Origin: Bacteroidetes bacterium QS_9_68_14 | Lineage (GTDB): Bacteria > Bacteroidota > Rhodothermia > Rhodothermales > Salinibacteraceae | Direction: 5' to 3' | NCBI GenBank assembly: GCA_003022535.1 | Contig: PXTT01000074.1 | Location: forward strand, 1 to 41,549 | DNA: 41,549 nucleotides | Program-made: the position numbers and the translations under genes | Notes under the pieces: generated by a model | What the model saw: only the letters and a program-made list of their open reading frames with translations | Database searches by the model: none | Told to the model about the DNA's origin: nothing | Shown: positions 8,734 through 41,549 of the stretch, piece after piece | Layout: the number at the start of each line of letters is the position of its first letter | How positions within the stretch are numbered: position 1 is the stretch's first letter

Positions 8734-11700
8734 GTGGCTCGCCTTTTTGGGTTCTCGGTGCCCGCTGCCCCTCCTGCTGCGCGCACGCTGCGCCGCTCGG
8801 GGCTTCTCGCCTTTCTTCTCGTCGCCGTCGCCGGGAGCGCGTTGCTCGGAAGCGTATTGCTCGGAAGCGCGTTGCTCGGCGGGGCTACGCCGGCCCGCGC
8901 CTCCGCGCCAGCCGCCAGCGCGTGGCAAGCGGGCGCCCCGGCCGACACCAGCAAGCCAGCGTCGCTCTCGCAGGCGCAACGCCGCTGGGTCGAGCGCCAG
9001 ATGGAGCGCCTCTCGCTGGCGGAGAAGGTGTCGCAAATGTTCAGCGTCTGGGTCAGCGGCTACTTTCAGCCCACCGGCGACGCCTCGGTGCGCGACGTGG
9101 CCCGGCTGATCGAGGACTTCGGCCTCGGCAGCGTCAGCTTCGGGCGGGGCGCTCCGATGGCGCAGGCGGCCCTGGCGAACGACCTGCAACGCCGAGCGGA
9201 GCTCCCGCTGCTGGTGTCGCAGGACATGGAGTGGGGGCCGGGGATGCGCCTGGAGCGCGCTTCTACGTTTCCCCGCGCGATGGCCGTCGGGGCCACGCGC
9301 GACCCGACCCTGGCCCGCCGGGCGGGCCGCATCACCGGCCGGGAGGCGCGCGCGCTGGGCGTGCAGCACGTCTTCGCGCCGGTGGCCGACGTGAACAACA
9401 ACCCGCTCAACCCGGTCATCGGGACGCGCTCCTTCGGGGAAGACCCGCAGCTCGTGGCGCGCATGGTGCGCGCCTTCGTGAACGGCGTGCAGGAGGGCGG
9501 CGCCATCGCCACGGCCAAGCACTTTCCTGGCCACGGCGACACGAGCGTCGATTCGCACCTGGGCCTGCCGGTGCTCGACATCTCTTCTCGCGCGCGCCTG
9601 GACACGCTCGAGCTCGTCCCCTTCCGCGCAGCCATCGACGCGGGCGTCAGCAGCGTCATGACGGGGCACCTGGCGCTCCCGGCTCTCCAGCCCGACCGCC
9701 GCCGCCGCGGCGCCGACCCGCGCCGCGTGCCGGCCACGCTCTCCCCCCGCCTCACCGATCAACTGCTGCGCGAGGACCTTGGCTTCGAGGGGCTGGTCGT
9801 CACCGACGCGCTCACCATGAGCGGCATCACCGAAGGCTTCGGCGCCGGGGAAGCGGCCATCCGTGCCATCGAAGCCGGGGCCGACGTGCTGTTGAAGTCC
9901 GAGGATTTCTACGCCGCGCGCCACGCCGTGCTGGAGGCGGTGAGCGAAGGCCGCCTGGGGCGGGCACGCATCGACCGCTCGGTGCGGCGTGTCTTGCGGG
10001 CGAAGGCGCAGATGGGCCTTCCGCAGCGCCGACTGGTGGACCTCGCGGCGGTGCGCGAGCGCGTGGGCGCTCCCGAAGACCAGTTGCTGGGCGACGCCAT
10101 CGCGCGCCAGTCGCTGACGCTGCTGCGCAACGAGGAGGGGCTGTTTCCCATGACGCCGGTCAGTGCGCCAGAGCGTGTGCTGGTCGTCGTCTTGAGCGAC
10201 AGCAGCGACCGCTCCACCGGGCGCGCCTTTCGCCAGGTGCTCCAGCGCGGGGTACCGGCGGGCACGGAGCTGACCGTTCGCACGCTCGACGCGCGCTCCG
10301 ACTCCAGCGACTTTGCGGCGGTGCGGGCCGAGGCGACGGCGTACGACGCGGTGCTGGCGCCAGCCTTCCTGCGCGTGCGCTCCGGCGGCGGGCGCATCCG
10401 CCTCCCCGAGGCGCAACGCGCTTTCCTGAATGGCCTCGTCGAGGCCGAGGTGCCCGTGGTGCTCGTGTCGTTCGGCAACGTTTACGGGGCCGCCGGCCTC
10501 CAGGCGCAGCCGGCGGCCTACCTGGCCACCTACGGCACGGAGGCGGCCACGCAGCGGGCGGCCGCGCAGGCGGTCCTCGGAAAAAGCCCGACGCCTGGCA
10601 AGCTGCCCGTCACCGTGCCCGGGGCGTACGACTACGGGGCGGGCATCCCGCTGGAGCAGGTCGCCCCCCGCCGCGACGCGCCCCGCGTGGCCGGCCTGCA
10701 CCCGCGCCGCCTAAGCCGCACCGACTCACTCGTGCGCGCCTCCATCCGCGAGCGGGCCTTTCCCGGGGCCGCCCTGGCAGTGGGGCGCGGGAAAACGGTG
10801 GCGAAAATGCAGGGCTACGGCTACCAGACTTACGCGCTCGACGAACCCGTTACGCCTCGCTCGCGCTTCGACCTGGCTTCCCTCACGAAGGTGGTCGCCA
10901 CGACCCCCGCCGCGATGAAGCTTTACGAAGAAGGCCGGCTTTCGCTCGGCGACCGCGTGGCCAGCCATCTGCCCGCCTTCGCGCAAAACGGAAAAGGCGA
11001 CGTAACCATCCGCCAGCTCCTGACGCACTCGTCAGGCCTGAAAGCCTATCTGGGACCCGAGGAGCGCGGCGACACGCGCGGAAGCATTGAAGAGGCAGTC
11101 ATGGCGCAGCCGCTCCAGTACGAGCCGGGCACCAAGTCCATGTACAGCGGGCTGGGGATGATTGCGCTCCAGCTCGTGATCGAGAAAATCACCGGCCAGT
11201 CGCTGGCGGCCTACGCCGAGGAGCACGTCTTCGAGCCGCTCGGCATGGCGCACACCGGCTTCCGCGCTGCCGGCGCGACCGGCGACTCGTCGTTCGTCCC
11301 CACCGCCGACGGGGAGGACACCTTCTACGGACGCGTGCATGACCCGCTCGCGCGCCAAATGGGCGGGACCAGCGGCAACGCCGGGCTCTTCTCCACTGCC
11401 GAGGACCTCTCGAAGTTCGGCTACATGCTCGTCAACGAGGGCCGCATCTACGGCAAGCAGTTTCTCGAGGCGGAGACGATCGAGACCTTCACCGAGCGCG
11501 CCGAGGGGCTGGGCGGCACCCGCGCGCTCGGATGGGACACCAAGACGATGGGCGCAGGCTACTCCTCAGCCGGTTCGCGCTTCGGCCCCGAGAGCTTTGG
11601 CCACACCGGTTTCACGGGCACCTCCCTCTGGGTCGATCCTGAGCAGGACCTCTTCGCCCTTTTGCTGACTAACCGTGTCTACCCGCGCGGCGGAGCTAAC

Positions 11701-40334: not shown

Positions 40335-40721
40335 TCAGTCGGGGCGGATGGTGACGGTGTCGGGGACGAGAAAGGCGTCGGGGTACTGCTGCTGGACGGT
40401 TTCGAGGTCGTCCTGCGCGGCGTCCCGCGAGGCGAAGGCACCGACGCGCACGCGGTAGTAGGGTGCTTTCCAGGCGACCTCGACGGGCAGGCCCCAGGTG
40501 CTCTCTGCCTCGGCGGCGCGCTGATTGGCGGCACTCTTGTCGCCAGTGGTGAGAATCTGGATGCGGAAGCCCTGCACGGTGCGTGGCTCGCGCGGTTCGT
40601 CTTCCTCCGCAGGTGGGGGCTCGTTTTCCTCGCCAGTGGCGCGCTCGAGGACGGAGCAGGCCGGCAGAAGTAGCAACGCGGCGATCAGCGCGAGCCCCGG
40701 CGTGGCGAAGCGAGCGGACAT
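40335..40721 (-). CDS. SPOR-domain lipoprotein
   Basis: The 128-residue product has a lipoprotein signal (LALIAALLLLPACS, lipobox LPAC with Cys22). An acidic/Pro linker (about 30-47) leads to a C-terminal SPOR domain (about 48-125) with GFRIQILTTGDKSAANQRAA, PYYRVRVGAFASRDAAQDDL and a closing AFLVPDTVTI strand. SPOR domains bind denuded glycan strands at division sites, so it is likely lipid-anchored in the envelope. It starts 120 bases from the terminal CRISPR hairpin on the same strand. The ATG at 40721 matches the signal exactly. Confidence 0.88.
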   Translation of the reverse strand: MSARFATPGLALIAALLLLPACSVLERATGEENEPPPAEEDEPREPRTVQGFRIQILTTGDKSAANQRAAEAESTWGLPVEVAWKAPYYRVRVGAFASRDAAQDDLETVQQQYPDAFLVPDTVTIRPD

Positions 40722-40839
40722 GGCGAGGGGGAAGCGGCGAGCCGAAATGACGGCGGGGCCGCTTCCACCGTGCGGCGGGGATCAGGTTGCGCCGCGGTTG
40801 TAACGTATCGTTTTCGGGCTGGGGGCCGGCGAAGGACTG

Positions 40840-40869
40840 AAAAAGCACCGTCCCTGGAGGGACGGTGCT
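40840..40869 (-). terminator. Intrinsic terminator formed by the degenerate last CRISPR repeat
   Basis: Read on the minus strand, AGCACCGTCCC pairs perfectly with GGGACGGTGCT through a 4-base TCCA loop and is followed at once by TTTTTC. This is a textbook Rho-independent terminator. Its stem is the palindromic core of the CRISPR repeat at 40906-40940, so it appears to have evolved from the terminal repeat. Confidence 0.75.
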
Positions 40870-40940
40870 GTATCTCGTAGACGGCAGAGCGCGGGACGGG
40901 CTGGACTTTCAATCCTCACCGTCCCCGAAGGGACGGTGCT
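40844..40940 (-). CRISPR. Minimal CRISPR array: two repeats, one spacer
   Basis: An intact repeat (40906-40940, ~35 bases) has, in transcription sense, the hairpin ACCGTCCC-TTCG-GGGACGGT and the 3' handle GGATTGAAAG, typical of type I-C repeats. A 36-base spacer (40870-40905) separates it from a degenerate second repeat (40844-40869 and a few bases beyond) that keeps the hairpin but lost the ATTGAAAG end. The array lies 206 bases downstream of cas2 in the same orientation. One spacer only suggests loss, recent acquisition, or a collapsed assembly. The spacer target is unknown. Confidence 0.82.
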
Positions 40941-41146
40941 GTTGGCATTTCTTACAATAGGCTGCCGCGCAGAGACTTGCAAGGCCCATTTCGCAGACCC
41001 ATACCCCGGCCACGCGCGACTGAGAGAGCGGAAAACGACTTCGTGTAAGCCACCTGTTGCGAGAGAGCCAGTTAGAAAGATTCGCAGACCTTCCCGCCTT
41101 TTCATGAGCACCCCTAGTCCGCGCCGAGGGCGCAGCGACGGCTTCC
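40941..41146 (-). other. CRISPR leader region
   Basis: This 206-base gap between the cas2 stop and the first repeat holds no gene. It is where the leader promoter and integration signals normally lie. Short A+T-rich patches occur next to the repeat (about 40946-40960), but no promoter boxes are convincing. Confidence 0.55.
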
Positions 41147-41434
41147 TCACAGCACCAGCGGTTCGTCGAGGTCGAGAGGGTCGGATCCCCAGGTGCGCAC
41201 CGTCTCGGCGGTGGGCTGGGCGAGGCGGTAGATGCGCAGGCTGTCGGATTCCTCGTCGATGAGCGCGATAAGCTGATCTTCGAGCTGCTCGTACTGCGCG
41301 CGGTCTACGCTGCACTCGAAAACGGACTGCTGCACGCGTTGCCCGTAGTCTACGCACGTTTTCGCCACGCGGCGCAGGCGGCGGCGCCCGGCCTTGTCTT
41401 CAGTCGAGACGTCGTAGGTGACGAGCACGTCCAT
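41147..41434 (-). CDS. cas2: CRISPR-associated protein Cas2 (type I-C-like)
   Basis: Cas2 forms the spacer-integration complex with Cas1. The 95-residue product has the ferredoxin-like fold words MDVLVTYDVST with the metal-site Asp8, then RRRLRRVAKTCVDYGQRVQQ, SVFECSVDRAQYEQL and DEESDSLRIYRL, and ends DPLDLDEPLVL. Sequence and ending closely follow type I-C Cas2. It starts 15 bases after the cas1 stop and precedes the array, the standard I-C order. Length is normal. Confidence 0.95.
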   Translation of the reverse strand: MDVLVTYDVSTEDKAGRRRLRRVAKTCVDYGQRVQQSVFECSVDRAQYEQLEDQLIALIDEESDSLRIYRLAQPTAETVRTWGSDPLDLDEPLVL

Positions 41435-41449: not shown

Positions 41450-41549
41450 TCACTGCAAGAGAAACGGCAAGTAGGCGTCCATGTCGCCGCGCAGGGTGCG
41501 CGCCAGGAGACGCGCCTGCGTGTGCGGCAGAAGCCCCAATTCCATCTGC
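41450..41549 (-). CDS. cas1: CRISPR-associated protein Cas1, C-terminal end
   Basis: The window edge cuts this gene; only the last 32 residues remain, including LPHTQARLLARTLRGDMDAY and PFLLQ before the stop. This matches the QARLLAR.LRGD.DAYPPFL ending of type I-C Cas1. With cas2 and the array it identifies a probable type I-C locus whose effector genes lie beyond the right edge. Confidence 0.85.
   Translation of the reverse strand, partial: QMELGLLPHTQARLLARTLRGDMDAYLPFLLQ

What the first reader, a model, noticed from the sequence alone, without database searches (positions are those of the whole stretch)
40840..40940. Terminal CRISPR repeat converted to an intrinsic terminator
The last repeat keeps the palindromic stem, loses the ATTGAAAG handle, gains perfect 11-bp pairing and is followed by five Ts. 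It would stop array transcription exactly at the array end and protect the downstream SPOR gene. Terminal repeats often degenerate; such a clean conversion is unusual.
Basis: partly seen in the sequence, partly recalled or inferred. Interest (0 to 1): 0.6.

Follow-up and report, generated by a model that had tools for sequence, protein, structure and literature searches.

The report
CRISPR array's last repeat as terminator
At the end of a tiny CRISPR immune-memory array in a bacterium of a salt-loving family, the last repeat has swapped its guide-RNA handle for a run of Ts, so its hairpin looks like a transcription stop signal; relatives in the same family share this, 46 more distant arrays do not, and one sister species has lost the whole array but kept the stop signal.

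Summary
On the minus strand, downstream of cas2, two 37-nt type I-C-like repeats flank one 34-nt spacer. The first repeat (40942-40906) is intact. The last (40871-40835) matches it at 24 of 26 stem-side bases but only 3 of the 11 bases that form the I-C crRNA 5' handle. It ends in a 10-11 bp perfect hairpin (-21.7 kcal/mol) followed directly by TTTTT (40844-40840). No other hairpin this strong with a T-run occurs in the 41.5-kb contig or in 20 shuffles. Both arrays of a family relative, Longimonas halophila, end the same way. In congener G001 the array after cas2 is gone and a hybrid 'repeat 5' half + terminator tail' remains at the leader end. One family member and 46 I-C arrays elsewhere lack it (one weak exception). 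A third congener has the downstream SPOR gene without CRISPR or terminator, so the terminator goes with the CRISPR locus. Best explanation: an inherited intrinsic terminator made from the terminal repeat, ending the pre-crRNA at the array boundary and removing the handle that could make an extraneous crRNA. Termination itself is untested. Terminal-repeat decay, extraneous-crRNA suppression and array collapse are known; the repeat-derived terminator is a new variant.

The parts
40906..40942 (-). R1: intact leader-proximal repeat, 26-nt stem-loop part plus 11-nt 5'-handle AGGATTGAAAG
   Evidence: weak Rfam CRISPR-DR9 match at the same coordinates (25.4 bits, below gathering); same 3' end as repeats of family relatives
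40872..40905 (-). single spacer, 34 nt
   Evidence: no exact match of its 26-nt core in viral contigs; only a weak 25-nt phage hit, E=0.1
40835..40871 (-). Rt: terminal repeat with stem kept and handle replaced by CTTTTTCAGTC
40844..40869 (-). terminator hairpin AGCACCGTCCC-TCCA-GGGACGGTGCT, -21.7 kcal/mol
40840..40844 (-). T-run TTTTT, the predicted 3' end of the pre-crRNA
40943..41146 (-). leader region between cas2 and R1, conserved with G001 and related to its second leader
41147..41434 (-). cas2
   Evidence: Pfam PF09827 E=1e-24; TIGR01573; 53-68% identical to Cas2 of relatives
41451..41549 (-). probable C-terminal end of cas1, cut by the contig end
   Evidence: read from the sequence and from the position of cas1 in relatives; too short for a profile match (no hit)
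40335..40721 (-). SPOR-domain protein gene downstream of the terminator
   Evidence: PF05036 E=1.8e-12; orthologues in G001 and G002

Best explanation
Rt is the oldest repeat of a type I-C array and has become, and been kept as, an intrinsic terminator. The pre-crRNA starts in the leader, passes R1 and the spacer, and RNA polymerase stops at the U-run just after the Rt hairpin. Two things follow. First, transcription ends at the array boundary. Second, the 11-nt 5' handle that Cas5c would otherwise release from the last repeat is not made, so no extraneous crRNA can form from downstream sequence, while the hairpin still gives the last spacer's crRNA a 3' stem-loop. The element sits on the CRISPR side of the locus and is inherited within this family. 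Shown: the anatomy, its rarity, its recurrence in relatives and its presence without an array in G001. Inferred: termination in the cell, extraneous-crRNA suppression and the selective reason.
For: Anatomy and fold. The changes are confined to the handle; in Bacillus halodurans Cas5d cuts at the hairpin base leaving an 11-nt 5' handle and recognises the single-stranded 3' end of the repeat as well as the hairpin (PMC3890593), and the 5' end of the handle is thought critical for I-C Cascade assembly (PMC7684278). Both arrays of Longimonas halophila (G004) end in AGCACCCGTC-TTCA-CGGGCGGGTGCTTTTTT and AGCACCCGCC-TTCA-CGGGCAGGTGCTTCTTTTTT (folds -19.0 and -15.5), with the switch at the same repeat position. 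In G004 array A one stem change is compensated (T-A to G-C) and another keeps a wobble pair. Congener G001 keeps a single hybrid ACAGCACCGTCCCTTCGGGGGCGGTGCTTTTTTTT at the leader end, -22.0 kcal/mol, with a longer T-run. G002 has the SPOR gene without the terminator. Class 1 extraneous crRNAs are expected from the last repeat, where mutations can accumulate without harming acquisition (PMC13187072).
Against: No RNA data. Salinivenus iranica (G019), in the same family, has a decayed terminal repeat with no T-run. 46 I-C arrays outside the family do without it, so it is not generally needed. G004 array B has a C.A mismatch in the stem. The family examples are few (the window's genus and Longimonas) and may reflect one ancestral event. 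Effector genes of this genome are not in the assembly, so Cas5c processing of these repeats is assumed. The one-spacer array comes from an incomplete draft assembly and was not checked with reads.
Confidence: 0.7

Rival explanations
1. Neutral decay: terminal repeats commonly lose their 3' part; this one decayed next to a T-rich stretch and the terminator look is incidental.
For: Terminal repeats are often degenerate at the 3' end (PMC8047081, PMC5491264). Handle loss with stem extension but no T-run is seen in G033 and Pseudovibrio flavus (L116). G019 shows plain decay.
Against: The changes fall in the handle and loop while the stem is kept and extended; the same switch (GGTGA to GGTGCTT) occurs in three terminal repeats of two genera; hairpin and T-run are present, with a longer T-run, in G001 without an array; 0 of 46 outgroup arrays show stem plus immediate T-run, while 3 of 4 readable family array ends do (P = 2e-4, not corrected for shared ancestry).
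Confidence: 0.17
2. The hairpin was originally an ordinary terminator (of cas1-cas2 or upstream of the SPOR gene) and not a repeat; its likeness to R1 is secondary.
For: It lies at the end of the cas operon and before a same-strand gene; G001 has it with no array.
Against: It matches R1 over 24/26 nt including the unpaired bases before the stem, at repeat spacing (34-nt spacer); G001's remnant carries the intact repeat's TTCG loop; G004 terminators carry the loop of G004 repeats; G002 lacks it before the SPOR gene.
Confidence: 0.06
3. Protection of the array from collapse: Rt diverged to reduce recombination with R1 (an 'anchor'), and termination is a by-product.
For: Degenerate terminal repeats reduce terminal spacer loss in Enterococcus faecalis (PMC5491264), and trailer polymorphisms are proposed to prevent collapse (PMC8047081).
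Against: 26 nt remain almost identical, and G001 looks collapsed through just that stretch; the anchor idea does not predict a T-run.
Confidence: 0.07

Closest known systems
Mutated terminal repeats of type V-A (Cas12a) arrays that block extraneous crRNA (PMC6610086)
   Same: last repeat altered so that no crRNA forms from downstream sequence; shown by experiment there
   Different: there the mutations disrupt recognition or processing; here the stem is kept and made into a terminator and the handle is replaced
Rho-independent terminators and extra-repeat mutations at type II-C arrays (PMC12080349)
   Same: terminator or repeat mutation at the repeat that would make the extraneous crRNA
   Different: there the terminator lies upstream of the array, is separate from the repeat and is not enriched over other intergenic regions; here it is the terminal repeat itself, at the transcript's end, in a class 1 system
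Array collapse to a solitary repeat (reviewed in PMC8047081; Legionella I-F)
   Same: G001 keeps leader plus one repeat-like unit
   Different: the remaining unit in G001 is a terminator hybrid without the handle, so refilling it would copy a terminator; likely a dead end
Degenerate 'anchor' terminal repeats (E. faecalis CRISPR2, PMC5491264)
   Same: 3' part of the last repeat lost
   Different: no terminator mentioned in the passages read

Membership tests
Type I-C CRISPR array | Direct repeats with palindromic stem and ATTGAAA-type 3' end at regular spacing | tested here: met
   R1/Rt spacing 71 nt; same 3' end as arrays of relatives. Only two copies, one of them altered
Type I-C CRISPR array | Adjacent I-C cas genes (cas3, cas5c, cas8c, cas7c, cas4, cas1c, cas2) | tested here: inconclusive
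   Only cas2 and a probable cas1 end lie in this contig; Cas1 and Cas7 not found elsewhere in the 56%-complete genome. I-C Cas7 in congener G001 and cas3, cas5c, cas8c, cas7c and cas1c in G004
Intrinsic (Rho-independent) terminator | Stable G+C-rich stem directly followed by a T-run on the transcript strand | tested here: met
   10-11 bp, -21.7 kcal/mol, TTTTT
Intrinsic (Rho-independent) terminator | Stops transcription in the cell | not testable with these tools
   needs 3'-end mapping or a reporter
Extraneous-crRNA-suppressing terminal repeat | Last repeat changed in the part needed for crRNA function | tested here: met
   8 of 11 handle positions changed; role of the handle from PMC3890593 and PMC7684278
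Extraneous-crRNA-suppressing terminal repeat | Extraneous crRNA appears when the repeat is restored | not testable with these tools
   needs RNA sequencing in a laboratory strain
Collapsed array (G001) | Leader present, array reduced to one unit shared by first and last repeat | tested here: met
   contig continuous from the cas2 end to the SPOR gene

The most novel reading that the evidence does not exclude
A family-wide fixed array-end element: one ancestral conversion of the terminal repeat into a terminator that has been kept while spacers turned over and that has tracked changes in its own array's repeat (stem and loop), so that it still serves as both terminator and 3' stem-loop of the last crRNA. 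After array collapse it survives alone and, lacking the handle, makes the locus unable to be refilled.
Probability: 0.25. Interest if true: 0.6.

Novelty: new variant of a known kind. Interest (0 to 1): 0.45.

Why it matters
Every class 1 array has a spare last repeat that could yield a useless or self-directed guide RNA, and how such arrays end transcription is rarely described. A repeat that is itself the terminator solves both with a few base changes, and the three congeners give a side-by-side case of array, collapsed array and no array. It makes a simple test possible: restore the handle at the last repeat and look for extraneous crRNA and read-through.

Tried and rejected
Native SPOR-upstream terminator: rejected on G002; G002 is not a clean empty site, because the gene upstream of SPOR there sits next to other genes in G000 and G001, so it marks a synteny break and not an excision. 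Bidirectional terminator: the plus strand has no T-run after the hairpin. Pairing of the R1 handle with the terminator tail (10 bp, in the fold; P about 0.004): half of it lies beyond the T-run, it is not kept in G004, and G001 keeps the tail without R1, so treated as probable coincidence. Likeness of the sequence after the T-run to an inverted repeat (18 of 21, P about 0.005, post hoc): unexplained, not seen in G004. Brucepastera (L130) as a convergent case: its T-run starts about 10 nt after the stem, weak. Spacer target: none found. Repeat and G004-terminator patterns in viral contigs: none. The survey of repeat mutations by Mitrofanov et al. (Microlife 7:uqaf050) could not be read, so an earlier mention of repeat-derived terminators there is not excluded.

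Full report
What is there. The window is a complete contig (G000:C74, 41,549 bp) of a 1.76-Mb, 56%-complete genome. At its right end, on the minus strand, come the probable end of cas1, cas2 (41434-41147), a leader of about 200 nt, repeat R1 (40942-40906), one 34-nt spacer (40905-40872), terminal repeat Rt (40871-40835) and, 119 nt beyond the T-run, a SPOR-domain gene in the same direction (40721-40335). R1 and Rt are nearly identical over the 26 nt that hold the stem-loop (two loop differences) and differ at 8 of the 11 following bases. R1 ends GGTG-AGGATTGAAAG; Rt ends GGTG-CTTTTTCAGTC. The change extends the stem from 9 to 10 pairs, or 11 if the first T is used, and leaves a T-run at 40844-40840.

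More than chance. It is the only perfect stem of 9 bp or more followed by at least 5 T in 8 on either strand of the contig, with none in 20 shuffles of one strand. A looser definition gives five minus-strand sites and up to five per strand in shuffles, so weaker hairpins of this kind carry no weight.

Relatives. The closest genomes were searched with Cas2. Congener G001 is syntenic from the end of cas2 through the leader to the SPOR gene, but between leader and SPOR gene there is no array, only ACAGCACCGTCCCTTCGGGGGCGGTGCTTTTTTTT. It has the loop of an intact repeat and the tail of the terminator, which is what recombination between R1 and Rt inside their shared stem would leave. G001 has a second, populated array behind cas7c with a related leader and a different repeat stem, so the locus type in this genus is I-C with two leaders. 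Longimonas halophila (G004; named through) has two arrays; both end in a repeat whose handle is replaced, at the same position, by CTTTTTT or CTTCTTTTTT. In array A one stem substitution is compensated and one leaves a wobble pair; array B has one mismatch. G024 keeps a leader followed by one repeat-derived hairpin and a T-rich tail, with no array. Salinivenus iranica (G019) has a decayed last repeat without a T-run.

Outgroup. From 80 GTDB loci with an I-C-like Cas2 and loci from 395 genomes of the phylum, 46 arrays outside the family had a readable distal end. None had the repeat stem followed directly by a T-run; Brucepastera has a T-run about ten bases after the stem. Pseudovibrio (L116) and G033 show the first half of the change, loss of the handle with a longer stem, without Ts. 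The counts 3 of 4 in the family against 0 of 46 outside give P = 2e-4, but family members share ancestry, so this shows a lineage trait and not repeated selection.

Not a pre-existing terminator. Congener G002 has the orthologous SPOR gene with the same upstream motif AAAACGATACGTTACA, preceded by another gene and no hairpin. The upstream gene lies elsewhere in G000 and G001, so this is a rearrangement boundary; it suggests that the terminator goes with the CRISPR side and is not tied to the SPOR gene.

Mechanism. In type I-C, Cas5c (Cas5d) cuts at the base of the repeat hairpin, leaving 11 nt of repeat as the 5' handle of the next crRNA, and recognises both the hairpin and the single strand 3' of it (PMC3890593); the handle is clamped by Cas5c and Cas7 in Cascade (PMC7684278). 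For class 1 systems the extraneous crRNA is expected from the last repeat (PMC13187072). Replacing these 11 nt by a T-run and stopping there removes both the handle and the downstream transcript. The last spacer's crRNA keeps a 3' stem-loop made by termination instead of cleavage. These steps are inferred; only the sequence features are shown.

Comparison with known cases. Mutated last repeats that prevent extraneous crRNA are shown for Cas12a (PMC6610086); terminators and extra-repeat mutations are described for II-C, where the terminator lies upstream and is separate (PMC12080349); decay of the last repeat and collapse of arrays to one repeat are reviewed (PMC8047081). In the papers searched I found none that describes a terminal repeat that has become an intrinsic terminator, but most subscription papers and one directly relevant survey could not be read.

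Limits. No RNA data; incomplete draft assembly; few independent examples; effector genes of this genome not assembled. The choice between one ancestral conversion that then tracked its array's repeat and several separate conversions is open: the shared switch position favours one origin, the array-specific loops and stems would then need concerted change.

Noticed in passing
L035 (G004, Longimonas halophila), + strand from about 18300 and - strand about 11500-11700: A MITE-like element sits in the T-run of the array B terminator, flanked by CTTTTTTGG on both sides (9-bp target duplication, by eye); a copy in the other orientation lies in the distal part of array A.
   Followed up: partly
L045 (G001:C70): Second I-C array of the congener, at least 12 repeats, directly behind cas7c, with a leader related to the cas2-side leader; the two loci in one genome have different repeat stems.
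   Followed up: partly
L055:10562-10620 (G024): Leader followed by a repeat 5' half, an inserted hairpin, the complementary arm and a T-rich tail, without any array: a second array-less remnant in the family.
   Followed up: partly
window 40842-40820: The sequence from the T-run onward resembles the start of an inverted repeat copy (18 of 21, P about 0.005, post hoc); a weaker likeness in G001, absent in G004.
   Followed up: partly
L116 (Pseudovibrio flavus) and L036 (G033): Terminal repeats with handle lost and stem extended to a longer palindrome but no T-run, possible half-way states.
   Followed up: no
L130 (Brucepastera parasyntrophica): Last repeat runs into a long T-run about ten bases after its stem; a weak, possibly convergent terminator.
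   Followed up: partly
L138 (G011:C81): A lone repeat-like unit (CCCTCCCGTGAAGGAGGGTGAGGATTGAAAG) with no array seen nearby in a genome of the same genus as Longimonas.
   Followed up: no
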